Part shown: positions 5,259 through 24,473 of the stretch, one piece after another
Layout: the number at the start of each line of letters is the position of its first letter
Numbering within the stretch: position 1 is the first letter of the stretch
From: a virus
Direction: 5' to 3' (one strand)
Virus record (IMG/VR): IMGVR_UViG_3300021136_000330
Coordinates: 1-24,473 of that record
DNA length: 24,473 bases
The notes under the pieces: model-generated
Seen by the model: only the letters and a program-made list of their open reading frames with translations
The model's database searches: none
What the model was told of the DNA's origin: nothing
Translations under genes and position numbers: made by a program

Positions 5259-5259
5259 A

Positions 5260-6462: not shown

Positions 6463-6463
6463 G

Positions 6464-7201: not shown

Positions 7202-7863
7202 TATATTGGTGTACTCGTTACAAGAATTTGTTCTTTACGGACATTTTTGTCCATTACTACAATGCTATCATAAAAATGCATGCCGGTTAGTTCTTTAAAG
7301 AATTTAGCAAGTGCAATATTATCAGGGTGACGGTCATTGCCACGATAGTAATTAACATTCATTGTATCTGAAATTTGTTTTGCATATTCAAGAAAGCTAC
7401 GTGGGTTATTAAGTCCGCCGCCATATTCTGGCCAGTATGCAGTATGTGTATCTTCACACATATAAACACCACCATTAACAATATGTGGCCATACTTGTTG
7501 CAACGTAACAATCTGTTGACTCATATGATGACCACCATCGTCTAAGAACACATCAATTTGCGGATATGTTTTTAGAAACTCTTGCCAAAATGCAGGGTCA
7601 CCTTGATTGCCATTTACTTGTATGCAACCTTCAGTTTGATGGCGTTGTTCAAATGACACTGGATCAACATCGATGCCGACAATAGTAGCATCAGTACCAA
7701 AATACTTCTTCCACATCTCAGCACTTCCGCCCCTACAGATACCAACTTCGACTACAACTGGTTTTCTGTTTTGATATTTTGCAAAATGTCGTTCATAAAT
7801 GTCAAAGTACTCAGACCATTTACCGCAATGTAAATCTAAATTATCAAATATATCTCTTAGCAT
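7201..7863 (-). CDS. CmcI/TylF-like class I methyltransferase
   Basis: The protein has 220 residues from the ATG at 7863, which has GAGAG nine bases upstream; another ATG three codons earlier (7872) is possible but has GAGAG too close. Motif I is VVVEVGICRGGSAEMW and the second SAM-contacting strand is IVGIDVDP. DVFLDDGGHHMSQQ matches the metal-binding acidic patch of the CmcI/TylF O-methyltransferases, which need magnesium, and VNGGVYMCEDTH follows. Such enzymes methylate hydroxyls of sugars or other small molecules. It overlaps the rmlB stop by a few bases and its own stop overlaps the next start, which supports a role in decorating the deoxysugar. The fold is confident; the acceptor is unknown. 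Confidence 0.82.
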   Translation of the reverse strand: MLRDIFDNLDLHCGKWSEYFDIYERHFAKYQNRKPVVVEVGICRGGSAEMWKKYFGTDATIVGIDVDPVSFEQRHQTEGCIQVNGNQGDPAFWQEFLKTYPQIDVFLDDGGHHMSQQIVTLQQVWPHIVNGGVYMCEDTHTAYWPEYGGGLNNPRSFLEYAKQISDTMNVNYYRGNDRHPDNIALAKFFKELTGMHFYDSIVVMDKNVRKEQILVTSTPI

Positions 7864-8885
7864 CTTAACCATCTCTCATTTGCAAGTGTCCACTCAACTA
7901 CTTCACCAATACGTTGGCTTAATGAATACTTTGGTTCCCATCCTAAACTGCGCATGTAGTCACCACTTAATGCATAACGTAAATCATGTCCTGGACGTGA
8001 ACTATGACAATCCACTAATTCGTATTTTAGTTCTTTGCCTTGTACTTGCGCAATAATTTTAGCAAGCGTTAAATTATCGATTTCTTCTTTACCTACTAAG
8101 TTGAACTTAGGACATTTGGCGCCGCCAAAGTCAGTAGTAAGTTTAGCATCATCTAAGTTTAACAAGAAGTGCATTGCATCTGCAACGTCTGCGGCATGGA
8201 TATAATGTCTACTACCTGCTACTGTGCGACTAACATCACTATGTACAGTAATTGTGTCACCATCTAATACTTTACGTACACACATTGGGATAAATTTCTC
8301 TGGATGCTGTCTTTCACCAAACACGTTCATCGTGTGTGTAATGAAGATTGGCATTTTATATGTATTTTCGTATGCAACTGCAAGTTCTTCACCGCCTGCT
8401 TTAGTAGCAGAGTATGGGTTAGTTGAGTTGTAACGGTCGCGCTCACCATAATTAATACCAGGAGGAGCTGCGCCGAAGATCTCATCTGTTGAGAAGTAGA
8501 TAAAGCGTTCTAAGTTAGGAAGTGTACGTGCATAGTTTAGAATATTACAAGTACCTACAACGTTATCAAGCACAAAGCTCATTGGATCGGCAATACTGCG
8601 ATCAACGTGAGAACCTGCCGCTAAGTGTAATACAAGATTAACATCACCTAAATCATATTGTAACATTGAGTTAAGTTCTGCACGTAAATCGTGATGCACA
8701 ACCCGTACACGTTTTTTAGTTGTCGCATCAAATTGATCCATCATATCTGCAAGGCGATTTAAGTTGCCTGAGAAATCTAAGCGATCAAGACTGATAATAT
8801 TCCAATCAGTATTTCTAAGTAAGTTTTCAATAACGTGATGGGCTACAAAACCTGCGCCACCCGTTACGAGTACGTTTTTTGACAT
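7857..8885 (-). CDS. rmlB: dTDP-glucose 4,6-dehydratase-like (RmlB)
   Basis: This 342-residue extended short-chain dehydrogenase begins MSKNVLVTGGAGFVAHH, an NAD-binding Rossmann motif with Ala at the usual third Gly. The catalytic Thr-Asp-Glu of 4,6-dehydratases is seen at residues 133-135 in FSTDEIFG, and Y158-x3-K162 in NPYSATK. These define conversion of dTDP-glucose to dTDP-4-keto-6-deoxyglucose. Length is slightly below the usual 350-360. A good AAGGAA lies six bases before the ATG and a late-promoter match lies about 40 bases upstream. RmlC and a C3-methyltransferase are encoded nearby. I see no glucose-1-phosphate thymidylyltransferase (RmlA) or RmlD, so the substrate would come from the host or from genes outside the window. 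Related CDP- or GDP-sugar dehydratases remain possible. Confidence 0.88.
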   Translation of the reverse strand: MSKNVLVTGGAGFVAHHVIENLLRNTDWNIISLDRLDFSGNLNRLADMMDQFDATTKKRVRVVHHDLRAELNSMLQYDLGDVNLVLHLAAGSHVDRSIADPMSFVLDNVVGTCNILNYARTLPNLERFIYFSTDEIFGAAPPGINYGERDRYNSTNPYSATKAGGEELAVAYENTYKMPIFITHTMNVFGERQHPEKFIPMCVRKVLDGDTITVHSDVSRTVAGSRHYIHAADVADAMHFLLNLDDAKLTTDFGGAKCPKFNLVGKEEIDNLTLAKIIAQVQGKELKYELVDCHSSRPGHDLRYALSGDYMRSLGWEPKYSLSQRIGEVVEWTLANERWLRC

Positions 8886-8921
8886 TGAATGTTCCTTTTA
8901 GTTGAATTTACTGCTATATGG

Positions 8922-8929
8922 TATTTATT
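8922..8929 (-). promoter_or_regulatory. T4-type late promoter match
   Basis: AATAAATA on the minus strand fits the T4-like late consensus NATAAATA. It would start transcription near 8915, about 30 bases before rmlB, in a short non-coding gap, and so would drive the sugar operon late in infection. Confidence 0.5.
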
Positions 8930-8951
8930 TTAGCATATAACACAGATAAAA

Positions 8952-9107
8952 TTATGCTGGTTGTGATACTTTACCTTCTACGTATTCACGAATGAACTTA
9001 ACTGCTTTGCGACTTGTATCAAATACAAACTCTTTAGCGTCATCTTCGGTATTTAAAATTACAATAAAACCATTTGCTACTTTTCTAATTTCGATTGATT
9101 CAAACAT
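8952..9107 (-). CDS. Small conserved phage protein, 51 residues
   Basis: This short frame encodes 51 residues beginning MFESIEIRKVANGFIVILNT. GAGG lies eight bases before the ATG and a sigma-70 promoter is just upstream. The pattern of two beta strands (IEIRKV, GFIVIL), a short acidic turn, EFVFDT and a helix KAVKFIREYV suggests a small beta-beta-alpha fold. By recall, similar MFESIEI-type proteins are found in T4-like cyanophages, with no known function. It sits between rmlC and rmlB, showing that the sugar genes are threaded among core phage genes. Confidence 0.75.
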   Translation of the reverse strand: MFESIEIRKVANGFIVILNTEDDAKEFVFDTSRKAVKFIREYVEGKVSQPA

Positions 9108-9141
9108 AGTGTTACCTCATTGATTAATTGTTTATCTTACA

Positions 9142-9171
9142 ATAATAGCATATTTGCAAGCACAATGTCAA
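9142..9171 (-). promoter_or_regulatory. Sigma-70-type promoter
   Basis: TTGACA (9166-9171) and TATTAT (9142-9147) on the minus strand are 18 bases apart. The site follows the rmlC stop and precedes the 51-residue gene, with a transcription start expected near 9135. Confidence 0.65.
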
Positions 9172-9176
9172 CCTTT

Positions 9177-9722
9177 TTAGAACTTTTTGGCAAGATTCCA
9201 CGTCGGTTGGGCAGTATCTTTGCTAGAAACTATCGGTATTGCACCATTTAGCCCCCATTCTATGTTTATTGTTGAATCATTCCATAGTAAGCCGTGATCC
9301 GAATCGGATGAGTAAAATTCATCCTGTTGATAGTGTACAATAGTATTATCAACTAATGTCATATAGCCGTGATAAAATCCATCGGGTACGTAAATTAATT
9401 GTGCAGTATCTTCGCTTAGGGTAACTGAGCCCCATTGCCCATACGTTACTGAATCTACACGTGCATCAACAAACACATCCAACACCGCACCACGTATAAC
9501 TTGCAATAACTTGGAAGTTTGGTGAGGTGGGATTTGTGTGTGCAATCCACGAATAGTATGTTTTAGTTCAGTGCGCACTGTGTTGGATTGAACAAATGGT
9601 TTTGCAATTCCGTATTCTTCCATCCATTTGTTCGACCAACTTTCAGCAAACCAGCCTCTACTATCTGCATGGCGAGCAAACATAAGTAGCTTTGCTCCGC
9701 CAATAAGATTATGTACCTGCAT
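9177..9722 (-). CDS. rmlC: dTDP-4-keto-deoxyhexose 3,5-epimerase-like (RmlC)
   Basis: The 181-residue cupin has the RmlC hallmarks: FVQSNTVRT, then RGLHTQ with the catalytic base His61, Lys71 in SKLLQV, GAVLDVFVDAR, YVPDGFYHGY, and Tyr131 in HYQQDEFY, the likely proton donor. Length fits the family (about 180). RmlC epimerises C3 and C5 (sometimes C3 only) of dTDP-4-keto-6-deoxyglucose made by RmlB. Its start overlaps the stop of the upstream small gene as TAATG. With the C-methyltransferase downstream, it could supply a 3-epimerised branched sugar instead of rhamnose, since RmlD is not seen. Family assignment is strong; the product sugar is inferred. Confidence 0.92.
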   Translation of the reverse strand: MQVHNLIGGAKLLMFARHADSRGWFAESWSNKWMEEYGIAKPFVQSNTVRTELKHTIRGLHTQIPPHQTSKLLQVIRGAVLDVFVDARVDSVTYGQWGSVTLSEDTAQLIYVPDGFYHGYMTLVDNTIVHYQQDEFYSSDSDHGLLWNDSTINIEWGLNGAIPIVSSKDTAQPTWNLAKKF

Positions 9723-9931
9723 TACTTAGCTGGTTGTTGCTGACGTGCTTGTCCGCCGTTAGCTGGTGTTGAGCGTAATTCAGAGAACTTTTTGTTCTTT
9801 GATTCCATAAATGATTGCTGTGCATCAACCATTGCTTTCAAATATAAACGACGTGATTCTTTGTCATCAATTGTAGACAATGTTAATTTAACCATCTTAC
9901 CTAATTTAAAACTTGCATTTGTTTTAGCCAT
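9722..9931 (-). CDS. Small conserved phage protein, 69 residues
   Basis: The start is the ATG at 9931 with AAGGAG nine bases upstream; the frame stays open nine codons further, but no ribosome site supports an earlier start. The product begins MAKTNASFKLGKMVKLTLST and ends in a Gln/Ala-rich tail. By recall, short proteins beginning MAKSNASFKLGK are common in T4-like cyanophages, without a known role. It is basic and helical (ESRRLYLKAMVDAQQSFMES), so a nucleic-acid or virion-assembly role is possible but unproven. Its stop overlaps the rmlC start. Confidence 0.75.
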   Translation of the reverse strand: MAKTNASFKLGKMVKLTLSTIDDKESRRLYLKAMVDAQQSFMESKNKKFSELRSTPANGGQARQQQPAK

Positions 9932-9944
9932 GCTGTAATACTCC

Positions 9945-10184
9945 TTATCGTGATTCAACTTTGAGATTTAGTACAAAATTTTCTACTAACAGTTTAGTTA
10001 TTGTTGCTACTATAATTGCTTCGCCATCTTCTGTATCGGCGTGTTGCTTATATAGTTCGTATGCTTGACTGCCAACCATTTGATATATATGATCTTTATT
10101 AAGCGGCAAGTTTTCCCAATCAATTGCATCAGTTGTTTCAACTTCTTGTGCTAGTGCTATAATTTGTTCTAATGTGTAGTTCAT
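9945..10184 (-). CDS. Conserved phage protein, likely leaderless mRNA
   Basis: This 79-residue protein begins MNYTLEQIIALAQEVE and ends IVATITKLLVENFVLNLKVESR. By recall, the last segment resembles a conserved cyanophage small protein ending ATITKLVVENFVLNLKL; the function is unknown. There is no ribosome site before the ATG. Instead a very good sigma-70 promoter has its -10 box ending six bases upstream, which places the expected transcription start on the A or G of the ATG. The message is probably leaderless. The SD of the next gene lies just past this stop. Confidence 0.75.
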   Translation of the reverse strand: MNYTLEQIIALAQEVETTDAIDWENLPLNKDHIYQMVGSQAYELYKQHADTEDGEAIIVATITKLLVENFVLNLKVESR

Positions 10185-10190
10185 AGTACT

Positions 10191-10219
10191 ATTATATAGC
10201 CTTTAGAAAATGAAGTCAA
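10191..10219 (-). promoter_or_regulatory. Sigma-70-type promoter abutting a start codon
   Basis: TTGACT (10214-10219) and TATAAT (10191-10196) on the minus strand are separated by exactly 17 bases. The -35 box directly follows the T-run of the terminator at 10222-10245. The -10 box ends six bases before the ATG at 10184. Confidence 0.75.
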
Positions 10220-10221
10220 TA

Positions 10222-10245
10222 AAAAAGGCACCGAAGTGCCTTTTT
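10222..10245 (-). terminator. Rho-independent terminator
   Basis: On the minus strand AAAAAGGCAC-TTCG-GTGCCTTTTT forms a stem of five GC-rich pairs extended by A-T pairs and closed by a stable UUCG loop, followed by six T. It lies just after the stop at 10253 and ends the transcript of the PD-(D/E)XK-like gene. Confidence 0.9.
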
Positions 10246-10252
10246 AGAGAAT

Positions 10253-11410
10253 CTATCGTTTTTCTCTTGGTATGTCTGATACTGTCCTCTGAGCACGTGG
10301 AGCTGTCACTGTTCCGGGTGGTCTAAGTCCTGTAGTTGGTGCAGTTATGTTATCTACTTGCTTACGTATTGCATCTGCTGTTTCTTTACTGGATTGGGGC
10401 GCAATTCCTGTAAATTGTTCTGCACCATTTGACGAAGTTGACAATACTATTTGTGGCATAGCCTCTGATTCTGGTGCCATTAGATAGATAGTCGACGCAT
10501 TAATTTGACCGCGCATATCGTCGTATGTTTCAAAATACTGCGCAGATCCACCGCCGCGCACATCTAGCAATAGCATACCATCAAATCCAGCATATTTTTT
10601 ATAATTATCATATCCTGTACTCAATACTGCTTCTTTGATGGCACCGGCGTCACCAGTTTGTAGTGATTCTTTATACTCTGAGTTATTAACATGTGAAAAC
10701 AATCCATCGGCCATAATTGTTGTTACTTTGTCGAGTGCTGTCGAATCATCCTGTATCAAAGGACGTACTGTATTAACCCAAAACGTAATCCCTACTCGTG
10801 CTGGCATTTCAATACCGTTTGCTACTACTATTTCAGCAATTGCATCTCTAATAGCTCGCATGTTTAAATTAGCTTTACGTGCGTCGCTCCAGCGGCCACC
10901 TTTGCTTACTGTAGTCTTAACTTCAACTGCCTTACCATCAATATTCAAATCGCCGCCACCACTTGCACGGCCACTATGTTTAATCTTAGGACTTAGTATT
11001 GCTAGTGCAATTTCCCCTGGTCCAACACCCTGTGCTGTTAATTCAATTGCAAGTAAACGAAATACTCGATCTGGGAAGCCAGCTTCAATGATATCAGTAA
11101 AACTATTTCTCTTACCATTCAGTAACGTAGTAGTATCAACAAAGCCATTTGGATATTCGTCTGCAAATTTTTCTTTTTCTTCAACGGTACCATCAACATG
11201 TACAATTAAATTAGCCAACTTATCTACCATCTTGTTAGCATCAACATCCTGTTTAAGTACTTGTTTAAGTTTTGCACCTAAGTCAGTAGACTTTAACGCT
11301 AATAGTACTTTGTGTAATATTTGTGGATCGTTGGTTTGGTGTACTAAATCAACTACTTGTTGTTTAAGAATAGATTCAGCTTCTAAAATGAGGTCAATAA
11401 ATTTGCGCAT
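10253..11410 (-). CDS. Phage protein with PD-(D/E)XK-like motif
   Basis: The 385-residue protein opens MRKFIDLILEAESILK, a helical start often seen in T4-like virion proteins. The middle contains GPGEIALAILSP (Glu133), then GGGDLNIDGKAVEVK with Asp154 and Glu163-Val-Lys165. The E...D...ExK order and strand pattern fit the active site of PD-(D/E)XK nucleases. This is a motif reading only. The C-terminus is Pro/Thr-rich, ends in basic residues and looks disordered. There is no ribosome site; a late promoter match ends four bases before the ATG, and the upstream gene's stop is 10 bases away. A terminator follows. Late expression suggests a virion-associated or packaging-time nuclease, which is inference. 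Confidence 0.7.
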   Translation of the reverse strand: MRKFIDLILEAESILKQQVVDLVHQTNDPQILHKVLLALKSTDLGAKLKQVLKQDVDANKMVDKLANLIVHVDGTVEEKEKFADEYPNGFVDTTTLLNGKRNSFTDIIEAGFPDRVFRLLAIELTAQGVGPGEIALAILSPKIKHSGRASGGGDLNIDGKAVEVKTTVSKGGRWSDARKANLNMRAIRDAIAEIVVANGIEMPARVGITFWVNTVRPLIQDDSTALDKVTTIMADGLFSHVNNSEYKESLQTGDAGAIKEAVLSTGYDNYKKYAGFDGMLLLDVRGGGSAQYFETYDDMRGQINASTIYLMAPESEAMPQIVLSTSSNGAEQFTGIAPQSSKETADAIRKQVDNITAPTTGLRPPGTVTAPRAQRTVSDIPREKR

Positions 11411-11414
11411 AATG

Positions 11415-11422
11415 TATTTATT
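11415..11422 (-). promoter_or_regulatory. T4-type late promoter overlapping a stop codon
   Basis: AATAAATA on the minus strand fits NATAAATA. Its first bases are part of the stop codon of the upstream radical SAM gene, and it ends four bases before the ATG at 11410, so transcription would begin at or very near the start codon. Confidence 0.5.
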
Positions 11423-12983
11423 ATTCTTTTCGTTCTATATCAATAGGTATACGTAGTTCTTTGAAAAATTTATGTTTATATTCCGTTGCTCGCTGTTGTT
11501 TACGCATATCAACTTGATTCCAATCAAAGTCTGAAACATATTTATTTGTCGAAAATTCTAAATCAAATCCAAGGCTAGCAATAGAAAATGATCCCAATCC
11601 TCCAATTTTAACAGATCGAACTGTTCTGCCAGACAATGTAAAATGGTTGGCAAGTTCTGTTGCTTTTTTCCAATCCATATAATCATTTTCCCATGCTAGC
11701 AAATGATCTTGTTTGCCTAATATTCGATATCCATAGCCCTTAGGATCTAATGTTATCTTACTGTAAAATTCATTTGATTTGGCGGCTTTATCTTCCATGT
11801 TAAATCCTCGAAATATCCAAGAATCAAGTGGAGAATCATCAGTCATTAAAGTATTAAAGGTGTCAGTTACTGATTCTACGCTTTCTTCCGGTAAGCCAAC
11901 CATAAAAGAACCGTGTAGCATTATTTGATTTCCCCACTTACCTTTAAGGTATCGTAAGGTTGCAAGTTGCTTTTCTTTAGCCATGCCCTTGCCAATGATT
12001 TCACCGGTGATTTTATTCCACGATTCGATACCCATGTAGGCTCCACGCATGCCACTGTCTAACAGTAAATCAGCTGTTTCTGGATGGGCCGAGATTAAAT
12101 CTAATCTTATATATGCCCAATATTCCAATTTAAAAGGCAAGCGTTTTGAAACATTATACATCATCTGCACTTTATCCACGCTATCATTAAAGGTATCATC
12201 GGAGAATATATATCTAGTTACTTGATATTTTTCGTAGTTTTCTAAAAATTCATTATATAAGAATTCTTCACTACGAATAAAATCTAATTTCTTTTTACCA
12301 TTTAATGGATAACTACAAAATGCACACTGGAATATGCAGCCACGAGCAATCTCAATAGGTAATGTTTCTCCTGGTAATACTACATCATATGTTTCGTACG
12401 ATGTCCTAGATGTTGCTATATCAAACCCATCTGCTTTACTATCATTTATTATAATAAATCCATTAATGCTTCTATATGATTTATTAAGTTTTTCGCCATT
12501 TAATAAATGATTTGCAAGATTAACTATACTCATATCTGCATAACCACATACTACATACTCATAATCTTTATTCCAACTAGCATCAGCAGCATCAGGACCA
12601 CCCAATACTATTTTACAATTAGGATTTGCGGTTTTAATAGTCTGCACTACTCGTCGATTCAGACTGTGTGCATGTGGTAACATAGATCCAGGTTTACATA
12701 ACGGCCACTCGATATGACCATCGTCTCGGGTAATTACATTTTCTAAATCACGATAAAATATAGAATTAAACCCTACAAACAATGTGTGAGATGAAATTAA
12801 ATGACTAAGTGTAGTCATAAGTTCATCAGGAGTCCATATATGCAAATGATTAATAACAACCACCTGATACCCTGCTTGTCGTAGGGCCGATGCAACTCGT
12901 GCAATCCCAAACAACTTCTGCATGAATATTGGCTCACTGTGATCTGTTAATAAAATAATATTTGGCTTACTATTGTCAAACAT
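11421..12983 (-). CDS. B12-binding-type radical SAM protein
   Basis: From the ATG at 12983 (AAGGAAAGATTA upstream; overlap TAATG with the preceding stop) the product has 520 residues. Residues 1-160 resemble a cobalamin-binding Rossmann domain (NIILLTDHSEP, VASALRQAGYQVVVI, IVLGGPDA, VVCGYAD). Then a radical SAM core has GCIFQCAFCSYP with Cys216, Cys220 and Cys223, YIFSDDTFN, RGAYMGIESWN and HGSFMVGLPEES. The classic DxHxxG of cobalamin binders is not evident, so B12 use is uncertain. Family members perform methylation, cyclisation or rearrangement of small molecules and sugars. It sits directly after a nucleotidyltransferase-cupin fusion, so a role in making an unusual sugar or surface group is plausible. 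The substrate is unknown. Confidence 0.82.
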   Translation of the reverse strand: MFDNSKPNIILLTDHSEPIFMQKLFGIARVASALRQAGYQVVVINHLHIWTPDELMTTLSHLISSHTLFVGFNSIFYRDLENVITRDDGHIEWPLCKPGSMLPHAHSLNRRVVQTIKTANPNCKIVLGGPDAADASWNKDYEYVVCGYADMSIVNLANHLLNGEKLNKSYRSINGFIIINDSKADGFDIATSRTSYETYDVVLPGETLPIEIARGCIFQCAFCSYPLNGKKKLDFIRSEEFLYNEFLENYEKYQVTRYIFSDDTFNDSVDKVQMMYNVSKRLPFKLEYWAYIRLDLISAHPETADLLLDSGMRGAYMGIESWNKITGEIIGKGMAKEKQLATLRYLKGKWGNQIMLHGSFMVGLPEESVESVTDTFNTLMTDDSPLDSWIFRGFNMEDKAAKSNEFYSKITLDPKGYGYRILGKQDHLLAWENDYMDWKKATELANHFTLSGRTVRSVKIGGLGSFSIASLGFDLEFSTNKYVSDFDWNQVDMRKQQRATEYKHKFFKELRIPIDIERKE

Positions 12984-13747
12984 TAATCTTTCCTTTCTAT
13001 ATCTTCTTCGACACATTGATCGCCATATTGTATTTCAATTATGCGACATGGTCTAGTATATGGGTTAGCAAGTTGATGCCATTGTTCTTCTGGTATGCGA
13101 TGAGTTGAACTTTTGGGTAGGTGCGGATTTTGTAGCGTTGTTGGGTAAACAATACTGTACTCGCTAACAGTTGCTTCGCCATCTGCAATAAACCATAACT
13201 CGGATCTATCGTAATGTTTCTGCATACTTAGGCGCTTGCCCGGATCGATGGTTAATTCTTTCACTTTTAGACCTGGAACGTCATGTAATACACGATAATA
13301 ACCCCATTCTCGTAGAGTTTTAGGCGCTTTCCACTCATCTAATATCCAACTGCTACTATTGAGCTTATCCTTGCCGCCAACGCCAAATGCAAATGCAACA
13401 TCTGCACATTTCATCTCAGGAATGTTATATTCTGTTCTATCGCCGCCGTTAGCAAATACTATCTCGCTGTTTGGGTACATTGCTTTAACGTTATTAATTG
13501 CTTCGATTGCAGTATCATCATCGTCGTTAAACAATATACAATGATCAACCATCTTTAAGTTTTCAATAATAGCAATACGCTCAGTGCTTGGCATAAATGC
13601 TCGGCCCTTCTTACGAGCAATCCAAGCATCACTGTTTACTCCAACAACAAGTATATGCCCAAGTGCTTTAGCAGCTTTGAAGTAGGCAATATGCCCGCTA
13701 TGCAAGCAGTCAAACCCGCCCGTTACAAGCACAACTCTATTAATCAT
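12983..13747 (-). CDS. Nucleotidyltransferase-cupin fusion
   Basis: The 254-residue protein joins two domains. Residues 1-140 form a cytidylyltransferase-like domain of the HldE/RfaE type: VTGGFDCLHSGHIAYF with HSGH at 16-19, VGVNSD, STER at 54-57 and GGDRTEY near 101. Residues 155-254 match the cupin at the C-terminus of type II mannose-6-phosphate isomerase/ManC: VKELTIDPGKRLSMQKH, LWFIADGEATV, HRIPEEQWHQLANP and IIEIQYGDQCVEEDI, with His178, Glu183 and His224 as probable metal ligands. One chain could thus isomerise a sugar phosphate and activate a sugar phosphate to a nucleotide sugar. The combination is unusual to my knowledge. Its start overlaps the upstream methyltransferase gene by eight bases and its stop overlaps the radical SAM start. 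Confidence 0.85.
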   Translation of the reverse strand: MINRVVLVTGGFDCLHSGHIAYFKAAKALGHILVVGVNSDAWIARKKGRAFMPSTERIAIIENLKMVDHCILFNDDDDTAIEAINNVKAMYPNSEIVFANGGDRTEYNIPEMKCADVAFAFGVGGKDKLNSSSWILDEWKAPKTLREWGYYRVLHDVPGLKVKELTIDPGKRLSMQKHYDRSELWFIADGEATVSEYSIVYPTTLQNPHLPKSSTHRIPEEQWHQLANPYTRPCRIIEIQYGDQCVEEDIERKD

Positions 13748-14636
13748 ATTTTTTCTTAGGTGGGCGCATTATACCAACTGCTTTAAGTAGCGTTGTACTT
13801 TTTTTAGTAGGTTTGCCTTGTTTAATAACCGGTGTAGTAGTCGGTGTGGAAATGTTAATAACACCATCTACCGTTCGTGTTGCTTGCTCTGGGATTTCTG
13901 TCCATTGACTTACATAATCAATATAATAGTTTTCTTTATCTAACCACGGATATAGTATATCTTCTTGTCGTAAGTAACCATACGAATTAATCGAATCAAC
14001 TACTGTTTGATTCAGTAAACCAAAATTAACCAAATCAAGCCAAGTTGTTGTAGTTGCATCCATTGGAGCAATTGCTGATTTATATACTGCAACATGAATC
14101 CACGGATCATTGAATTCTTTAAGCATATATGCATCTTTACAATCAAAGCCATTAACTGCAAGCATATAAATTAAACTGGTTGGAGTAAAGTTATAAAAAC
14201 ATCCGCTATGTGTACGACTATAGTATTTGTTATCGGCAACTCCGGAATGTTGTGGAATGCTTAAAATTAGCATAGCATCAACATTCATTTGCTCATTCCA
14301 CACTTTCAATGTTTCAATTGGGTTAGTGCTATACTGTAAACTATCGTGCGACCACATTAAATCAGCCAATACAGGCAAACAGAATTTATTAAAATCTTTT
14401 TCAAGTTTATGTATGTTAATAAGATCGGGAACTTTTGATAATTTAGCGGCGTCGCGGTCAATAGCAAAACAATTATAGTTGTATGGAACAGGCGTATCAT
14501 CGCGTGACTCTAATGTAGCCCACCAAGTGATATCTTCACCAGTGCCACAGCCTATGTCTACAATTGTATGTAAACTATCAAGGAAGCTATCATATTCCCT
14601 AAGTTGATTTAATACCTTAAGTGCATGTCTAGCCAT
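13740..14636 (-). CDS. SAM-dependent methyltransferase
   Basis: The 298-residue protein has a class I methyltransferase domain: motif I TIVDIGCGTGED near residue 25, a second strand NCFAIDRDAAKL, motif-IV-like LADLMWSHDSLQY and LILSIPQHSG. Residues 1-180 cover the domain. The C-terminal third contains a linker and a Thr/Lys-rich basic tail (KPTKKSTTLLK, RPPKKKYD), perhaps for contact with nucleic acid or membrane. The start overlaps the stop of the small gene before it (ATGGCTAG) and the stop overlaps the fusion gene start, so it is in the same operon. Substrate unknown: the neighbours suggest a sugar, but nothing in the sequence excludes a protein or lipid acceptor. Confidence 0.8.
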   Translation of the reverse strand: MARHALKVLNQLREYDSFLDSLHTIVDIGCGTGEDITWWATLESRDDTPVPYNYNCFAIDRDAAKLSKVPDLINIHKLEKDFNKFCLPVLADLMWSHDSLQYSTNPIETLKVWNEQMNVDAMLILSIPQHSGVADNKYYSRTHSGCFYNFTPTSLIYMLAVNGFDCKDAYMLKEFNDPWIHVAVYKSAIAPMDATTTTWLDLVNFGLLNQTVVDSINSYGYLRQEDILYPWLDKENYYIDYVSQWTEIPEQATRTVDGVINISTPTTTPVIKQGKPTKKSTTLLKAVGIMRPPKKKYD

Positions 14637-18583: not shown

Positions 18584-20929
18584 TTAAATACCAGCGATTC
18601 TGCGCATCTGTGCGATTTCTTCATTAAATTGTTTGTTGTATGCTGTTAAGTCGCCTTCGTCGTCGCCTTTAGACATTGCTTTCATTTGGCTTGGCATAAT
18701 TCTAGCTTTGTCTAACGGACTTAATTCTTTCGCACCCATACGTTTTAATTTTTCATCTTTGTTTACGTAATCGTCGCCAATTGCTTCGTCAACGTTAGAC
18801 ATCATACCCATGTCAGCCAAATCATCTGCAAACATTTGTGCAATTTCACCTTCGTCGTCTGCATCACGTTGTGCAGAATGACTTAATCTGTCATAATAAT
18901 ATTCATGTAAGTCACTTTCTAAATCATAATCTAATTCATTGTGATGGATAAAATTATCAACTGCCGCTTTGTTATTAGCAATAATAGCATCTAACGCACC
19001 TGTGGCTTCATCGATACCAAGTGATTTTGCTTTGTTATCACGTTGACGCATGTTAGCCATTTGTTTACTAAATTCTTTTTCGTGTGGAGGGCGGCCGAAC
19101 GGGTCATCAAAATCATATTTCAAAGTCTCATCATGTGCGTTCATTGCCTTGTTAAAACTGCGATCTGCTAAACGTTTATAGTTCTTACCGCGAACAGTAT
19201 CAACTATGCCTTCATCCATTTCGCCACCGCGATTAAACTGGTCTGGGCTGTCGATGTCTTGATCAAACTGCATATCGCTACCGTATTCTTGCTCTGGTTC
19301 ATCACGGTCACGTTCAAGTTCAATTTCGTCAGTGCCGCCTAAGTTGTTAATAACTTCTTTAACCCAACCGCTAACATCACTGCTACCAATTTCTTCAACG
19401 TTACCCACCCATTCAGCAACATCTCTAGATGCATTTGTAATTGCTTCTGGTCCGTATTGTGATAGTAAATCACTATGTGAATTTATGATACGACGAATAA
19501 TTGCCGCTTGTACTGCATCGCAGCTATCATTTTCTTCATCGTCGTAGTTTTCTTCAACGTTTGTATAATCTTGTCCACCAGCCGGTGTGCCGCCATATGT
19601 GTCGCCTTCATCCATTTCTGGCTCTGCTTGTTGACCGGCTGTATCTTCATCGCCAATTGCAGCCATAACTTGTTGATAAATTTCTGGCATGTTTTCTTGT
19701 ACCCAATCCATAACCACATCACGTGCATCAGCTTCTGGGTTTTCTTCTGCTAAATCACCTAAGCGATCAAACAATTGGTCATCACCGACTAAGTTATATA
19801 GTGCGCTAGTTGCGTTAGTTGCATCAATACCAACTGTTAGCGGTTCCATCAACAAGTCGATAAGTTCAGCAACTTGTTCTTCACCTTCCGGTTTAGCCCA
19901 TGTGCCTTCACTTACGTTGTCTGCCCAGCTTTCAAATTGTTGCGCGAAGTTATTAGATTTTTTCATATTATATGCCTTTTGTACAAGTGGTAGTGCGTCT
20001 TCCATTCTATCATTAAATGATCGTTTAACAAAGCGTTCACGCAATGCATCAACATCAAATTCATCCATTAAAACATCATCTGCTATAAAACTTTCTTTAC
20101 AAGCAGCATAACCTTTACGTCCACCCATTTTTTTAAGTGTATTGTTTAGCAAGCCGTGATATTCAAATGCGGCTTCTGCCATTGATTGTGTTTCAGCATC
20201 TTCAAATGTTCTACGTATCATTGCTGATTTAAACGGACGTAGTTTACCACATTCTTCTGCTATTTTAGTAATATGGCACCCAAAATCATCACCAGCGTCA
20301 CCACCTTGTGATATGTGTTGTGCCATTGCACGTGCGTATTTTAAGTTGTTGTGGGGTAGTTTAATACGTGCGCCATCTGCTGTTTCAATAAACAGAGCTT
20401 TAATTTTACGACTACGTGCGCCACGTTGCTCTGGGTCTACTCGATCGCTATGACGTACAATAATCTTTACGTCACCATCTTGCTCGTAACTACTACGACT
20501 TGTGCCGTGCATTCTGCTTTCGCCAAGTGCAACTTCATCTTTACTGTATGTATTGTCTGATTTGCTTACTTGTTGCAAATCGCGGTGTTTTAGTGTACTA
20601 CGTGTAATATCACGTGGGTCGAAACTTAATAAGTTGCGACGAGCAAACTCTCTTAGTTCACGTAAAAACGCATACCATTTTGCTTTTTCTTCATCGTCTA
20701 AATCACTACTGATGTTTTTACTAAAGTATACTTTAAGTGAATTTTCATCAATAACGCTAATTGTTATGTTACCGTGGCTTGCGCCATCTACTGTATAATC
20801 AAAGTTGAAGAAACGTGCGGATGCTGGATCTTGTGTTGCTTTAGCGTTTTCATCACCTAAAGTAACATCATCAAATCTATCACGGATTTTTTCAAACAAT
20901 GCTTCAGCTATTTTGTTTATTTCGCGCAT
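18584..20929 (-). CDS. Large acidic phage protein, probably virion-associated
   Basis: The 781-residue protein has several segments. Residues 1-130 are mixed alpha/beta (FFNFDYTVDG, NITISVIDENSLKVYFS). A central basic part has IIVRHSDRVDPEQRGARSRK and KALFIETADGARIKLPHNNL. A helical region follows, then a very acidic linker (residues about 430-480) and AAIIRRIINSHSDLLSQYGP...VEEIGSSDVSGWV, a module that by recall recurs in proteins of T4-like marine phages. The C-terminal third is charged and low in hydrophobic residues, with two copies of a D-E-A/G-I-like linker. No enzyme motif is seen. It begins 19 bases after a late promoter match and ends at a strong terminator, so it is a single-gene late unit, which suits a structural or scaffold-type protein. 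The function is inferred. Confidence 0.75.
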   Translation of the reverse strand: MREINKIAEALFEKIRDRFDDVTLGDENAKATQDPASARFFNFDYTVDGASHGNITISVIDENSLKVYFSKNISSDLDDEEKAKWYAFLRELREFARRNLLSFDPRDITRSTLKHRDLQQVSKSDNTYSKDEVALGESRMHGTSRSSYEQDGDVKIIVRHSDRVDPEQRGARSRKIKALFIETADGARIKLPHNNLKYARAMAQHISQGGDAGDDFGCHITKIAEECGKLRPFKSAMIRRTFEDAETQSMAEAAFEYHGLLNNTLKKMGGRKGYAACKESFIADDVLMDEFDVDALRERFVKRSFNDRMEDALPLVQKAYNMKKSNNFAQQFESWADNVSEGTWAKPEGEEQVAELIDLLMEPLTVGIDATNATSALYNLVGDDQLFDRLGDLAEENPEADARDVVMDWVQENMPEIYQQVMAAIGDEDTAGQQAEPEMDEGDTYGGTPAGGQDYTNVEENYDDEENDSCDAVQAAIIRRIINSHSDLLSQYGPEAITNASRDVAEWVGNVEEIGSSDVSGWVKEVINNLGGTDEIELERDRDEPEQEYGSDMQFDQDIDSPDQFNRGGEMDEGIVDTVRGKNYKRLADRSFNKAMNAHDETLKYDFDDPFGRPPHEKEFSKQMANMRQRDNKAKSLGIDEATGALDAIIANNKAAVDNFIHHNELDYDLESDLHEYYYDRLSHSAQRDADDEGEIAQMFADDLADMGMMSNVDEAIGDDYVNKDEKLKRMGAKELSPLDKARIMPSQMKAMSKGDDEGDLTAYNKQFNEEIAQMRRIAGI

Positions 20930-20948
20930 TTTTTTATTCTCATAGTAT

Positions 20949-20956
20949 TATTTATG
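20949..20956 (-). promoter_or_regulatory. T4-type late promoter match
   Basis: CATAAATA on the minus strand fits NATAAATA and lies in the gap between the terminase C-terminal gene and the 781-residue gene. Transcription would begin near 20942, leaving a leader of about 13 bases. Confidence 0.6.
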
Positions 20957-20980
20957 CTAGTCTGTTGAAAGGCATCTAAT

Positions 20981-22054
20981 CTAATATGTAGTCATTATCC
21001 AGGGAAGAGGCTCGATGAAATCATCTAACGTATCACGCATCGCACTATCTAAACTTGCATCGTATGATTGCAATAGCATAGCCATGCGTACCATTAGTAC
21101 TACACTCATTACTAAGTCATCTGTTTCGCCGGGTTTAGCAGCAAAGCTAGAGCCGTTTGCAACAAATGTTTTTAGTTCTGAGATTAAGTTCTTACTGTTT
21201 ACTGTTAAGCGTTTAGATTCAATTAAGTTTTTTAACTTTGCGCAAGCAGATAGCTTAGAACGTTGTGTTGTATTAAATCCCTTTCTATAACTTCCGCCAC
21301 TTGATTTGCGTGGTTCGTTTAAGAATGTTCCCTTAATGTTTTCTTCGCCCATCGATGCTACTGTTACTAATGCCGCTTCGCCGATAGAGTTGTTTTCCAT
21401 GCTATAGTATATGCTATTAACTGGCACAGTTTCAGCAAGGTACTTAGTAATCTCACTTAGTATAACAATTTGACGTTGTACTGGTGTGCGATTATGTTGC
21501 CACTCGCCTACTTGTATAAAACTTGGGAGTTCAAATATTTGTATTGCCGCTGGGTCGCCGCCTGTGCCTAGACTTGGGTCAAGTGCAACGAGATATGTAA
21601 ATGCTGGATTTGGCTTTTTATACCAACGTATTTGTCCTTGCTGTTCGATTGGGTCAATACCTTGCATTTCAACTAAATGCCCTGGGTTAATAAGTGTTTC
21701 ATCCCAGATGATAAATTCACAATTTGACGACAATATTCCATTTGTATAATAACGATGCCCACCGTCTACTTCGATTAAATCGTATACTAATTCTTCTCTT
21801 CCTAAATTTAATTTAGCAGATACTTGTTGATTGCCACTATTAGTTAATACTATATCTCCTACTACAAGTTCATCAACAGTAACTCTGATAGTATCACTAA
21901 CAAATACCTTATGATTAGATGTACACTCAATCCAATAGTCAGTACCCAATTCAATCCGGTGGATTTCTTTTTTGCCAAGACACCGAATGCCTACAAAGGA
22001 TTTATATCCATCAGGAGTTAACACTTTATAACCGTGTTTGTTTTCTTTATACAT
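20981..22054 (-). CDS. C-intein plus C-terminal half of terminase large subunit
   Basis: I start at the ATG at 22054, which overlaps the stop of the endonuclease gene as TAATG; an ATG three codons earlier is also open. The 357-residue product begins with a 111-residue C-intein and continues as the TerL nuclease half from Cys112 (CEFIIWDETLINPGH). The nuclease domain shows the three acidic sites of T4 gp17-type enzymes: VALDPSLGTGGD, YYSMENNSIGEA and GETDDLVMSVVL. These cleave the DNA concatemer during packaging. The half lacks an ATPase domain, which is in the gene at 23086-24003. Joined by trans-splicing it would give a 521-residue terminase. I see no other terL copy in the window, so activity of the intein is probably essential. 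Confidence 0.92.
   Translation of the reverse strand: MYKENKHGYKVLTPDGYKSFVGIRCLGKKEIHRIELGTDYWIECTSNHKVFVSDTIRVTVDELVVGDIVLTNSGNQQVSAKLNLGREELVYDLIEVDGGHRYYTNGILSSNCEFIIWDETLINPGHLVEMQGIDPIEQQGQIRWYKKPNPAFTYLVALDPSLGTGGDPAAIQIFELPSFIQVGEWQHNRTPVQRQIVILSEITKYLAETVPVNSIYYSMENNSIGEAALVTVASMGEENIKGTFLNEPRKSSGGSYRKGFNTTQRSKLSACAKLKNLIESKRLTVNSKNLISELKTFVANGSSFAAKPGETDDLVMSVVLMVRMAMLLQSYDASLDSAMRDTLDDFIEPLPWIMTTY
21722..22054 (-). other. C-intein (111 residues) of split TerL intein
   Basis: Residues 1-111 begin MYKENKHGYKVLTPDGYKSF, aligning well with the recalled AceL-TerL C-intein start MFRTNTNNIKILSPNGF. Block B is TSNHKVFV with the conserved His, and VTVDELVVGDIV is the usual D-x-L-x-x-G-D segment. 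Block F is LVYDLIEVDGGHRYYTNG and block G is ILSSN before Cys+1. The final Asn is present; the usual penultimate His is replaced by Ser. Confidence 0.9.
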
Positions 22055-23055
22055 TATTTCCATGCTAGTATCTCATATTCTGTTTTATTTTTAAACAACC
22101 AAACTTCGTATTCGTATCCTTGCTCTATTACTGAATCTTTCTTCCGTAAATTATTAATTAGTCTAGAATTATATTTTTCATTACCATTTCCGTTCCACCA
22201 CCACATGCTTTTTACTTCGATGATTTTATTCTCTTTTGAAATATAGATATCCGGATAATATGTTGCAAGGTGTAAGTTTACGTTTATATATGCAAACACC
22301 GGTAAACTATATATAGTTTTCCTATCATCAAATAATAATTCTGATTCGCTGTATTCTTTTAATAAGTTGGCCAGCACAGTATCTTCGTACCCACGAACCC
22401 CAACAACCTTACCCGATGGCATAACAAATGCTCGACCTATACTATTTGATTTAGCAGAATTTATTCTAGCTTCCGGTTTCATTAAAGCATTTTCGACCCC
22501 AAATCGATCCATACAAGTTGCACGACGTTTAGATACTATATTGGAAATTTCATCAAGTGTCTTTGCTTGCCAGGCATTGCTTGTTTGCTTGCTATTATTA
22601 TATGTTTCGCTACCATATTTTTCTTTCTTTGTCTTTCTAGATTTTTCTTTTTGGTCGGCAAACTTAGAACTCCATTCAACTCCATACTTGCGCATAAAAG
22701 TTGCTCTGGCTCGAGCCACTTGCAGCTCTTTCTGTTTGTCTGTCTTAGCATTGGCAGCTTTTTTCTTGTTTGCTGAATCCGATAGCTTCTGCTCGTCTGT
22801 CCATAATTGTTTTGATTTAGCTATAGTTTTACCCACACATACAGGGTTTCCGCAACTGCTAGCATAGGTGTGATTTTTTTGATAAAAGGTCAATGGTTTA
22901 CTACAACTACATAATTTAATAGTACCTGTTATATATTTTTCATAATATGCTTGATATGTGAGTTGATTTGTTCTGAGATGTTTTGTAAACTGACCGTTAG
23001 ATACACAATAGTTTTTGTTATCTATTTTCGATATTACATAATTTGCATCACTCAT
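22054..23055 (-). CDS. Homing-endonuclease-like protein, PD-(D/E)XK/Vsr type
   Basis: From the ATG at 23055 (weak GAGA upstream) the product has 333 residues; a TTG at 23085 would add ten but has no ribosome site. The N-terminal part has LTYQAYYEKYI and a Cys set (CSCSKP, CGNPVC) that may bind zinc. The middle holds repeated Y/F-G-V-E-type modules (FMRKYGVEWSS, KKEKYGSETYN, CMDRFGVENAL), seen in phage homing endonucleases as DNA-binding units. The C-terminal domain has YYPDIYISKENKIIEVKS, a PD...ExK active site, then WWWNG and GYEYEVWLF. This domain resembles the Vsr-like nuclease of endonucleases found between split-intein halves. It lies exactly between the two terL halves. Nuclease class is confident, target site unknown. 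Confidence 0.85.
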   Translation of the reverse strand: MSDANYVISKIDNKNYCVSNGQFTKHLRTNQLTYQAYYEKYITGTIKLCSCSKPLTFYQKNHTYASSCGNPVCVGKTIAKSKQLWTDEQKLSDSANKKKAANAKTDKQKELQVARARATFMRKYGVEWSSKFADQKEKSRKTKKEKYGSETYNNSKQTSNAWQAKTLDEISNIVSKRRATCMDRFGVENALMKPEARINSAKSNSIGRAFVMPSGKVVGVRGYEDTVLANLLKEYSESELLFDDRKTIYSLPVFAYINVNLHLATYYPDIYISKENKIIEVKSMWWWNGNGNEKYNSRLINNLRKKDSVIEQGYEYEVWLFKNKTEYEILAWK

Positions 23056-23085
23056 ACATTTCTCAATTAAATTGGTCTTCTCCAA

Positions 23086-24003
23086 TTATTTATCGATTAT
23101 ATTAAACAATTCACCAATTGTGACTATTTTTTGCTCATCATTAATTTCTAATTGTAGTATTGTATCACCGTTACAGCAATCCATCTCTCTACGGAAGCGT
23201 TCATCACCTAATTGCGCACGTTGTTCCGTTGCCCACGTGTCATCTCTATCTGGATGTTCTCTCCAATAACTACGGAATGATTTAAACCCATTAACTCCTA
23301 ACGCAGTGGCGTTTCCAAAATCGTCCACGCATTTGTTGGCTCCCTTCCACAGAGTAGCAAATTGATCTTCGTCTGAGTTAGGAGTTGATGTGATAATACA
23401 TTTACCGCCTGTTGCTAGTGTAGGACTGATAGAAGTCCAAAATTCACGACCGATTGTACTGCGTACAAATGCGAACTCATCACAATATAATAATGATATA
23501 GACATACCGCGACCTGTGTTTTCTGTCGTTGTAGCCGAGTTAATACGTGAGCCATTTTCAAAATCGATATTACCTTTGTTGTATGTTGTTACGCCAGCAC
23601 GTATAAAGTCAGGGCATAGTTCATATGCGTAACGAATACGTGACATAATTTCTTGCGAGCCTGTATATTTGTGTGCCGCGATAAGAATTGTTGCATCGGG
23701 TACGAACATTGCGTACCATAGTAAGTATCCGGCAGCACTTGTTGATTTACCAGTTTGACGTGGCATTAAACTGATACTGAATCTATAATTGTGATATGTT
23801 TCAATTAAGCGTTTTTGATATTCAAACGGCTGATACAACATACGTCCTTTAGTAGGATGTTGTATGTAGAAGTAATGACTCATAAAGTATTCCGGCCCAG
23901 TGATTGGGTCAGCACACTTAGCAAATTCTAAGAGCTGTTCTTCTGTAAATGTTTCTGATTGGTAGGGTCTTTTAACTAAGACGCTGTCTGGAGTTTGTGC
24001 CAT
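23086..24003 (-). CDS. N-terminal half of terminase large subunit plus N-intein
   Basis: The 305-residue product carries the ATPase motor of a T4 gp17-type terminase: Walker A RQTGKST at residues 82-88, Walker B LLYCDE with Asp175 and Glu176, and coupling motif TSTPN near 206-209. It ends RFRREMD at residue 275, then a 30-residue N-intein and a stop. The nuclease half is in the gene at 20981-22054. Alone, this polypeptide could hydrolyse ATP but could not cut DNA, so trans-splicing is needed for a normal terminase. The start ATG follows the upstream stop by four bases, and the ribosome site is weak, suggesting coupling to the gene before. The gene order, small protein, small protein, terL, is that of marine T4-like phages by recall. 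Confidence 0.95.
   Translation of the reverse strand: MAQTPDSVLVKRPYQSETFTEEQLLEFAKCADPITGPEYFMSHYFYIQHPTKGRMLYQPFEYQKRLIETYHNYRFSISLMPRQTGKSTSAAGYLLWYAMFVPDATILIAAHKYTGSQEIMSRIRYAYELCPDFIRAGVTTYNKGNIDFENGSRINSATTTENTGRGMSISLLYCDEFAFVRSTIGREFWTSISPTLATGGKCIITSTPNSDEDQFATLWKGANKCVDDFGNATALGVNGFKSFRSYWREHPDRDDTWATEQRAQLGDERFRREMDCCNGDTILQLEINDEQKIVTIGELFNIIDK
23087..23094 (-). promoter_or_regulatory. T4-type late promoter match inside N-intein end
   Basis: GATAAATA on the minus strand fits NATAAATA. It overlaps the last two codons and stop of the N-intein gene. Transcription would start near 23080, about 25 bases before the endonuclease ATG at 23055, giving that gene its own late transcript. 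Confidence 0.5.
23089..23178 (-). other. N-intein (30 residues) of split TerL intein
   Basis: The segment begins CCNGDTILQL, matching intein block A (C-x-x-G-D-T). By recall it aligns with the 25-residue AceL-TerL N-intein beginning CVYGDTMVET. It ends IGELFNIIDK before TAA. Cys1 directly follows REMD of the extein. It is much shorter than the roughly 100-residue N-inteins of the usual split site. Confidence 0.9.
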
Positions 24004-24007
24004 AATA

Positions 24008-24193
24008 TTACTTAGCTTGCGGAGGTAATGTGTTAATATTGTTGTGTGTTGCGATGAAGTTAGATAAACTCATCGGTTGATTTACATCAGTTACACTTGC
24101 AATTGTGTATGCTGGGTCGTTTACATCAAGTATTGCATCGGGGATTAATGACTCTGTATAGTCCTGTGCCCTAATGCGATATTGTTTAGACAC
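24008..24193 (-). CDS. Small phage protein upstream of terL, GTG start
   Basis: I choose the GTG at 24193, which overlaps the previous gene's stop (GTGTCTAA), giving 61 residues beginning MSKQYRIRAQDYTESLIPDA. An in-frame ATG at 24256 would lie inside the upstream gene and is less likely. MSK-YRIR beginnings occur in T4-like marine phage proteins by recall. The function is unknown. The stop lies four bases before the terL ATG, so the two are probably translated together. The ribosome site is weak, consistent with coupling to the gene before. Confidence 0.6.
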   Translation of the reverse strand: MSKQYRIRAQDYTESLIPDAILDVNDPAYTIASVTDVNQPMSLSNFIATHNNINTLPPQAK

Positions 24194-24461
24194 CGTACTT
24201 GTTCTTTTTACGTGTGGGTACTGGGCTAGTTTTGCCAGTGTTGCCAAGTTCTTCACTACGATTGTTAGTTAAGCGATTAACATGACCTGCGCCTACCATA
24301 TCAGCAGCACTATTAATCATCGCTAGTTCTTCATCTGTATATGTACATAGTAATGGGTCACCTGCTATTGCACCTGCTGCTTTAGTTGGGAAATCCGGTG
24401 CACCTGCTAATGCTAGCCCAAAGCGATATTGTGCATACGCACTACCGTTTGATTTGTTCAT
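24186..24461 (-). CDS. Conserved small protein upstream of terL
   Basis: The visible frame encodes 91 residues beginning MNKSNGSAYAQYRFGLALAG. It contains FPTKAAGAIAGDPLLCTYTDEELAMINSA and ends SPVPTRKKNKYGV. By recall, a protein of this pattern lies just upstream of gp17 in T4-like cyanophages, with no assigned role; a small-terminase function is not supported by motif. The frame remains open upstream to the window edge (PGIS before the Met), so the real start may lie outside. Confidence 0.75.
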   Translation of the reverse strand: MNKSNGSAYAQYRFGLALAGAPDFPTKAAGAIAGDPLLCTYTDEELAMINSAADMVGAGHVNRLTNNRSEELGNTGKTSPVPTRKKNKYGV

Positions 24462-24473
24462 ACTAATACCGGG

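What the first reader, a model, noticed from the sequence alone, without database searches (positions are those of the whole stretch)
20981..24003. Terminase large subunit encoded by two genes joined by a split intein, with an endonuclease gene between
The ATPase half ends REMD followed by an intein block A (C-x-x-G-D-T) and a stop. The nuclease half starts with a C-intein ending Asn before Cys-Glu-Phe. Excision of both intein parts gives REMD-CEF, the expected continuous T4-type sequence, and a 521-residue protein with all ATPase and nuclease motifs. A free-standing nuclease gene fills the gap. This is a fractured gene: a packaging motor that should exist only after trans-splicing. It appears related to the AceL-TerL system but is a distinct sequence.
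Basis: partly seen in the sequence, partly recalled or inferred. Interest (0 to 1): 0.92.

Follow-up and report, generated by a model that had tools for sequence, protein, structure and literature searches.

The report
Phage packaging gene split by intein
A T4-like phage encodes its DNA-packaging motor as two separate proteins that should be stitched together by a self-splicing intein, with a DNA-cutting gene sitting in the break; the arrangement belongs to a known kind, but some relatives have the same motor gene broken into three or even four pieces.

Summary
On the minus strand terL is two genes: 275 ATPase residues plus a 30-residue intein N part (23086-24003), and a 114-residue intein C part plus 246 nuclease residues (20981-22063). 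A DUF7487 endonuclease ORF fills the gap. The exteins meet exactly where 63 of 80 fetched relatives have an uninterrupted TerL. The modelled C half matches T4 gp17 nuclease and the Cat and VidaL inteins. A 329-kb record with the identical locus shows no second TerL. Trans-splicing is strongly supported by sequence, not shown by experiment.

Novelty is smaller than claimed: loci 78-88% identical to the Cat (AceL/GOS-TerL consensus) intein sit at the same TerL site, so this is a new, divergent member of the fractured-gene kind, with another endonuclease class.

The larger result lies in relatives. This site occurs intact, with a contiguous intein, or split, with DUF7487, HNH-like, GIY-YIG-like or no endonuclease. 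Further breaks in Walker A and near Walker B give TerL in three or four separately encoded pieces. Isolated phages (kaaroe, phiR1-RT, Thanatos-2) carry a Walker-B split.

The parts
23179..24003 (-). TerL N-extein, ATPase domain, 275 aa (MPRQTGKST Walker A; LLYCDEFAF Walker B), ends REMD
   Evidence: Pfam Terminase_6N 7.3e-16; PHROG 36964 5.9e-70
23089..23178 (-). IntN, 30 aa, CCNGDTILQLEINDEQKIVTIGELFNIIDK; stop codon 23086-23088
   Evidence: position and Cys1/CxxGDT; like tails in split relatives; no PDB hit alone
22054..23085 (-). Free-standing endonuclease ORF, DUF7487; likely ATG start at 23055 (333 aa); PD-(D/E)xK-like residues E234, D279, E290, K292 (numbered from 23085)
   Evidence: Pfam DUF7487 5e-31; PHROG 3339 homing endonuclease 8.2e-6; those residues invariant in 24 rows, window included; model pLDDT 82.4
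22052..22056 (-). TAATG: endonuclease stop codon overlaps the second ATG of the C gene (the first ATG is at 22063)
   Evidence: read from sequence
21722..22063 (-). IntC, 114 aa, block B TSNH, ends SSN
   Evidence: Cat 6dsl Z 15.1 over 113 residues, VidaL 6vgv Z 14.2; TIGR01443 above cut-off; T48, H51, N114 invariant in 11 rows
20984..21721 (-). TerL C-extein, RNase-H-like nuclease domain, 246 aa, starts CEF; stop codon 20981-20983
   Evidence: T4 gp17 3cpe Z 25.4 over 200 residues; phmmer 3c6a 3.5e-16

Best explanation
This is a fractured terL. Two polypeptides are made: ATPase-IntN and IntC-nuclease. The 30-residue IntN docks into the near-complete 114-residue IntC to form a HINT fold. Cys1 of IntN and Cys+1 of the nuclease half carry out class-1 protein trans-splicing, with Asn cyclisation at the IntC end, joining REMD to CEF and giving a 521-residue gp17-type motor. 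The DUF7487 gene in the gap is a homing endonuclease that spreads the IntN-endonuclease-IntC cassette into intact terL genes of co-infecting relatives. Shown here: the anatomy, the complementarity of the halves, the predicted fold of the C half, purifying selection on inteins of relatives, and transfer of such inteins among relatives. Inferred: the splicing reaction, the cutting specificity, and homing by this particular enzyme.
For: The two parts abut in one uninterrupted TerL in 63 of 80 loci; closest are L006-L017, N-extein 88-92% and C-extein 83-85% identical. Junction flanks: 91-98 of 120 nt identical to the window's joined flanks in the 8 of 10 relatives where the pattern was found. Catalytic set Cys1, TxxH, Asn, Cys+1. 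C half modelled as intein plus gp17 nuclease. No second TerL in the 329-kb record. No Rfam match at E <= 1. IntC dN/dS 0.03-0.15 in four unsaturated pairs of relatives (L138/L134, L129/L121, L128/L132, L071/L243). Transfer: extein and IntC identity to the window are uncorrelated (rho -0.006, n = 40); 7 of 19 pairs with IntC >= 80% identical have C-exteins at least 10 points less alike, against a median over 2,346 pairs of IntC 8.9 points lower. AceL-TerL is reported to trans-splice (review PMC11766414, passages). Isolated phages JK32, phiS and kaaroe have a split TerL and one TerL place each in the tblastn with the window's C half.
Against: No experiment. IntN alone gives no hit. The penultimate residue is Ser, not the His of the Cat-type site-3 junctions printed (Ser in 10 of 11 rows of the window's own alignment, Lys in the other). 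Pfam Intein_splicing is below its cut-off (25.6 vs 35.8 bits), as are Terminase_6C (20.8 vs 22.6) and TIGR01445 intein_Nterm (17.7 vs 24.5). Endonuclease fold matches are weak: Foldseek none at E <= 0.001, VIA Z 7.7 to Vsr, below two mitoribosomal rows. Homing by this enzyme is untested.
Confidence: 0.9

Rival explanations
1. Genes in pieces without splicing: the ATPase and nuclease chains work as two non-covalent subunits and the intein remnants are dead.
For: The break falls near the ATPase/nuclease domain boundary, so each half could fold alone; a nucleotide reductase gene split in two by an endonuclease and still functional is cited in the introduction of PMC10448857 (passage).
Against: Splicing residues are kept and IntC is under purifying selection in relatives. 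In relatives the same intein family splits Walker A between GK and T and leaves an 11-residue extein with the Walker-B DE between two inteins (L137, L141), which could hardly work unspliced.
Confidence: 0.05
2. Self-splicing RNA intron carrying the endonuclease, as reported for fragmented terL of Jug phages (PMC12363816, passages).
For: The same gene is said there to be split in 2-3 fragments by group I introns in other huge phages.
Against: No Rfam match at E <= 1 in 20900-24473 on either strand; intein coding sequence on both sides of the gap with its own stop and start; 4 relatives have the intein contiguous in one ORF (L105, L111, L112, L158).
Confidence: 0.01
3. Decayed or misassembled gene; packaging uses another TerL.
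For: The window record is a 24-kb fragment.
Against: Same locus in three other records; one TerL in the 329-kb record; Walker A, Walker B and the nuclease D, E, D residues are kept (by eye).
Confidence: 0.02

Closest known systems
AceL-TerL / GOS-TerL / consensus Cat split inteins
   Same: T4-type TerL host; same insertion site, judged on natural loci 78-88% identical to the Cat IntC (junction FE-CEFLGS, HMM 286); short IntN, long IntC (review: IntN 25, 37 and 30 aa); Cys1/Cys+1 as in those loci. AceL and GOS sequences themselves were not examined.
   Different: IntC 32-35% identical to Cat in the fold alignments; IntC ends Ser-Asn, not His-Asn; endonuclease is DUF7487, whereas of four Cat-type gaps read three hold a GIY-YIG-like ORF (by eye) and one none.
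Fractured genes (Dassa 2009, not held, recalled; AceL NrdHF in PMC7891396, passages)
   Same: Host gene in two genes with IntN and IntC ends and an endonuclease gene between; AceL NrdHF is described as a fractured gene with an intervening GIY-YIG enzyme.
   Different: Host gene, split position in the intein, endonuclease class.
Walker-B split TerL of isolated Straboviridae (phiR1-RT, kaaroe, phiS, JK32, Thanatos-2)
   Same: TerL in two genes with IntN/IntC ends (JK32 by annotation and HMM only).
   Different: Other site (IDE-CAF); in kaaroe, phiS and Thanatos-2 the N gene runs on for about 300 residues after the splice point; in phiR1-RT the endonuclease is a separate gene.
MIJ3 PolB split intein (PMC6892783, passages)
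   Same: Phage gene split by an intein with an endonuclease ORF between.
   Different: Polymerase, HNH enzyme; MIJ3's own TerL is one ORF.

Membership tests
Fractured gene with split intein and free-standing endonuclease | Two collinear halves of one host gene on the same strand | tested here: met
Fractured gene with split intein and free-standing endonuclease | IntN and IntC with splicing motifs at the broken ends | tested here: met
   IntC. IntN by motif, position and relatives only; no hit alone
Fractured gene with split intein and free-standing endonuclease | Endonuclease ORF between the halves | tested here: met
   DUF7487 5e-31, PHROG homing endonuclease 8.2e-6; activity untested
Fractured gene with split intein and free-standing endonuclease | Protein trans-splicing joins the exteins | not testable with these tools
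   needs proteins or proteomes
AceL/GOS/Cat TerL split inteins | Same insertion site in T4-type TerL | tested here: met
   76 of 80 Cat-type loci by the script's rule at HMM 286; of the other 4, three list a Walker-A IntC first and also have the site-3 one, and one (L346) is cut by the contig end. AceL and GOS themselves not examined
AceL/GOS/Cat TerL split inteins | Atypical split: short IntN, long IntC | tested here: met
   30 and 114 aa
AceL/GOS/Cat TerL split inteins | HINT fold close to Cat | tested here: met
   6dsl Z 15.1, rmsd 1.9, 113 aligned; other inteins lie within about 1 Z, so the fold alone does not single out Cat
Vsr-like homing endonucleases (I-Bth0305I) | Vsr-like catalytic fold | tested here: inconclusive
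   1cw0 Z 7.7, 3r3p Z 6.6, near Holliday-junction and tRNA-splicing nucleases of similar Z

The most novel reading that the evidence does not exclude
TerL of large T4-like phages is a docking hotspot for a family of atypically split inteins at three or more sites (Walker A GK|T, a Walker-B cluster, the ATPase|nuclease junction). Different homing endonucleases are swapped in and out of the breaks. Some phages build their packaging motor from three or four separately translated chains, so two or three related split inteins must splice in one protein without cross-joining, and the ATPase cannot work until they have done so. The window is the one-break member of this series.
Probability: 0.75. Interest if true: 0.75.

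Novelty: new member of a known kind. Interest (0 to 1): 0.52.

Why it matters
A motor that should exist only after trans-splicing is a clear case of a selfish element tolerated in an essential gene. The sequence adds a divergent short-IntN split intein, of use for protein labelling. The series from intact to four-piece TerL, and isolated phages of laboratory E. coli that carry a split TerL, make two questions testable: how split inteins and their endonucleases come together and exchange, and how several related split inteins avoid mis-splicing in one cell.

Tried and rejected
RNA intron: no Rfam match. Second TerL: none in the 329-kb record. IntN against solved structures: nothing. Window endonuclease in the phage collection: 4 records, 26.9-32.5% identical. 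Endonuclease identity by fold: only weak matches; top Foldseek rows are influenza PA endonucleases at E 3e-3 and above, top VIA rows mitoribosomal proteins, so I do not file it under Vsr.

The TerL HMM has the window's joined exteins among its 49 rows, so its exact 287/288 abutment is partly circular; and the PHROG profile are independent of that. The tree is a quick one (SH-aLRT only), the tool warned of long branches meeting, and it returned 12 changes for intact/invaded and 40 for gap class; I could not reconcile 40 with the drawn tree and use neither. dS comparison: of 25 pairs with intein dS < 1, 21 have C-extein dS more than twice that; this conditions on low intein dS and so leans towards the result, values of 9.00 are saturated placeholders, and L143/L141 goes the other way; I rest on the identity comparison instead, whose 19 pairs include window/L002, and in which 4 of 26 pairs with C-extein >= 80% have IntC at least 20 points lower.

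Gap classes: HNH-like and GIY-YIG-like were set by regex or by eye and only spot-checked with Pfam: L018 HNH 0.0039, below cut-off, with NUMOD3; L147 GIY-YIG 1.1e-7; L161 no hit; L097, counted as DUF7487, is a hybrid with REase_MTES_1575. Loci are not a random sample: the queries favour relatives of these parts, lists were cut at 80, many contigs are near-identical, and 26 loci on contigs already held (the window's own among them) were dropped. L313's second break (HMM 449) has no intein and looks like a frameshift; I do not count it. Dassa 2009 and the GOS-TerL paper are not held; statements on them are recalled or from the review. That multi-piece TerL is not in print rests on ten searches of one open-access library, a weak negative.
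Full report
WHAT IS THERE. The window is a 24,473-bp virus record. On its minus strand lie, in order, terL-N (23086-24003), an endonuclease ORF (22054-23085) and terL-C (20981-22063). The N gene has 275 TerL residues ending REMD and a 30-residue tail starting CCNGDT; the C gene has a 114-residue leader ending SSN and 246 TerL residues starting CEF. One PHROG TerL profile is hit by the N gene at 434-629 and by the C gene at 626-887 of 890. An HMM of 49 TerLs, one of them the window's joined exteins, gives 13-287 and 288-531 of 532. The endonuclease's probable ATG is at 23055, and its stop codon overlaps the C gene's second ATG as TAATG, so the C half may be translated by coupling (inference).

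IT IS AN INTEIN. TIGR01443, intein C-terminal splicing region, is above its cut-off; Pfam Intein_splicing is 1.2e-5 but below cut-off. Solved sequences: Cat 2e-10, VidaL 3.3e-6, gp41-1 0.03. A model of the C half from 24 aligned rows (mean pLDDT 83.5) matches T4 gp17 (3cpe, Z 25.4, 200 residues, rmsd 2.2) and, in its first 114 residues, Cat (6dsl, Z 15.1, 113 residues, rmsd 1.9) and VidaL (Z 14.2). Across 11 IntCs at this site T48, H51, N114 and Cys+1 are invariant; the penultimate residue is Ser in 10 and Lys in 1. IntN is recognised by place and pattern only (no hit).

THE BREAK IS NEAR A DOMAIN BOUNDARY. The structural alignment pairs model residue 117 with T4 gp17 residue 355; that this is about the ATPase/nuclease boundary of gp17 is recalled.

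THE ENDONUCLEASE. DUF7487 (5e-31); PHROG 3339 'homing endonuclease' (8.2e-6). In 24 aligned rows E234, P278, D279, E290 and K292 are invariant, a PD-(D/E)xK-like set (the motif name is recalled). The model (pLDDT 82.4, pTM 0.43) has a C-terminal domain with weak likeness to Vsr (Z 7.7), I-Bth0305I (Z 6.6) and Holliday-junction resolvases (Z about 6), below two mitoribosomal rows (Z 8.6, 8.1). Foldseek finds nothing at E <= 0.001.

NO SECOND TERL FOUND. The identical locus lies in a 329,321-bp record; each half has one match there and the endonuclease one. IntC has one strong match and two weak ones at 51.4-51.7 kb (E 0.0099 and 0.94), not followed. The record's completeness is not stated.

THE SAME SITE IN RELATIVES. 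Of the 80 loci fetched with the C half (423 relatives found, best 80 kept), 63 have the two parts abutting in one TerL and 17 are interrupted (many contigs are near-identical). Over the loci fetched by then, 245 distinct contigs, 174 have a usable region at this site: 83 split, 70 uninterrupted there, 4 with a contiguous intein in one ORF (L105, L111, L112, L158), 17 with the N part off the contig. Some of the 70 are split elsewhere (for example L246, L247, L255). Of the 172 rows in the tree, gap content of the 82 split ones, window included, is DUF7487 36, HNH-like 18, none 14, GIY-YIG-like 5, DUF7487 remnant 5, other 4. On that C-extein tree (quick, SH-aLRT only) the window and its two identical rows are sister to 12 uninterrupted TerLs (support 92), inside a 64-row clade (99, starred) whose only other invaded rows are L018 and L004, each with an HNH-like gene and each placed among uninterrupted rows. 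So the window's break looks like its own acquisition; gain versus loss is not decided by the tree alone.

TRANSFER. For 40 rows, identity of the C-extein to the window does not predict identity of IntC (rho -0.006, p 0.97): L018 has C-extein 70 and IntC 41, L094 65 and 64, L186 55 and 55. Over 2,346 pairs of 69 rows IntC is typically 8.9 points less alike than the C-extein, yet 7 of 19 pairs with IntC >= 80% have C-exteins at least 10 points less alike, for example L117/L113 (95 against 68), L164/L152 (95 against 74), L138/L134 (97 against 79). IntC dN/dS in four unsaturated pairs is 0.03-0.15. Junction DNA is 91-98 of 120 nt identical to the window's joined flanks in 8 of 10 intact relatives tried; in two the pattern was not found.

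RELATION TO THE PUBLISHED INTEINS. A scan with the Cat IntC kept the best 80 of 127 loci, 78-88% identical to it. By the script's rule 76 of 80 end at TerL position 286, that is FE-CEFLGS; three of the others list a Walker-A IntC first and also have the site-3 one, and one is cut by the contig end. The review describes Cat as the consensus of GOS-TerL and AceL-TerL (PMC11766414, passages), so the published type and the window very probably share the insertion site; AceL and GOS sequences were not examined. In three such loci the gap holds a GIY-YIG-like ORF, in a fourth nothing (by eye).

THREE AND FOUR PIECES. Recurrent break sites are Walker A between GK and T/S (HMM 98), a cluster around Walker B (HMM about 180-195), and the window's site. 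Of 263 records with TerL, 30 (22 distinct by C-extein DNA) have two or more split junctions; L313, one of the 22, is discounted because its second break has no intein. Six records, three distinct, have three split junctions, hence four chains: L071/L253, L254/L271, L257/L258 (L071, L254 and L257 read). L137 and L141 also have four ORFs, one of which carries only an 11-residue extein, CLVIDEMAFIE, between an IntC (ending Gln, not Asn) and an IntN; the HMM count misses it. L071 has a Walker-B break and only a remnant of the endonuclease where its close relative L073 has no such break and a whole endonuclease gene. Breaks in the ATP-binding motifs make unspliced subunits implausible and so argue for splicing in the family as a whole.

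ISOLATED PHAGES. 82 of 50,697 phage records match the Krischvirus Walker-B IntC at E <= 1e-3. I read the junctions of phiS, kaaroe (host K-12 MG1655), Thanatos-2 and phiR1-RT, and the annotation of JK32: TerL is two annotated genes meeting at IDE-CAF, and phiR1-RT has a separate 'endonuclease' gene between them, the window's layout. The rest of the 82 were not read. [quoted passage not shown]

VERDICT. Observation confirmed and interpretation supported; novelty reduced to a new, divergent member of the fractured-gene kind at the AceL-TerL-type site. The strongest new material is the multi-piece series in relatives, of which I found no description in ten searches of an open-access library, a weak negative.

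Noticed in passing
L071 2298-5671; L254 3325-8361; L257 3631-8551; L137 366-6243: TerL encoded in four separate ORFs joined by related split inteins; L137 and L141 include an 11-residue extein between two inteins, the first ending Gln rather than Asn.
   Followed up: partly
L356 (kaaroe), L357 (phiR1-RT), L358 (Thanatos-2), L088 (phiS), L089 (JK32): Isolated Straboviridae phages have TerL split near Walker B by an intein; the N gene is annotated as hypothetical protein, DNA packaging enzyme or a second terminase.
   Followed up: partly
L091 1747-3831 (Salicola phage SCTP-2): TerL CDS starts with an IntC at Walker B and holds a second, contiguous intein before TGGK; the upstream half was not located.
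   Followed up: no
L170 1337-2086, L171 1337-2086, L249 2841-3404: A second, partial TerL-like ORF lies directly upstream of the broken TerL.
   Followed up: no
G001 (329-kb record, L353, L354) 51402-51680: Weak IntC-like match (E 0.0099) with a stop inside; may be another split intein in the same phage.
   Followed up: no
window 18584-20929: Large protein gene directly downstream of terL-C, PHROG 13484 virion structural protein (9e-21).
   Followed up: no
window 3180-14636: Run of ORFs that by eye look like radical SAM, sugar epimerase, methyltransferase and nucleotidyltransferase genes, a possible surface-sugar cluster; not tested.
   Followed up: no
L097 3415-4989: Gap endonuclease is a hybrid: DUF7487 middle part (1.5e-11) with a REase_MTES_1575-like nuclease (5.7e-5, below cut-off), suggesting domain swapping between endonucleases.
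   Followed up: partly
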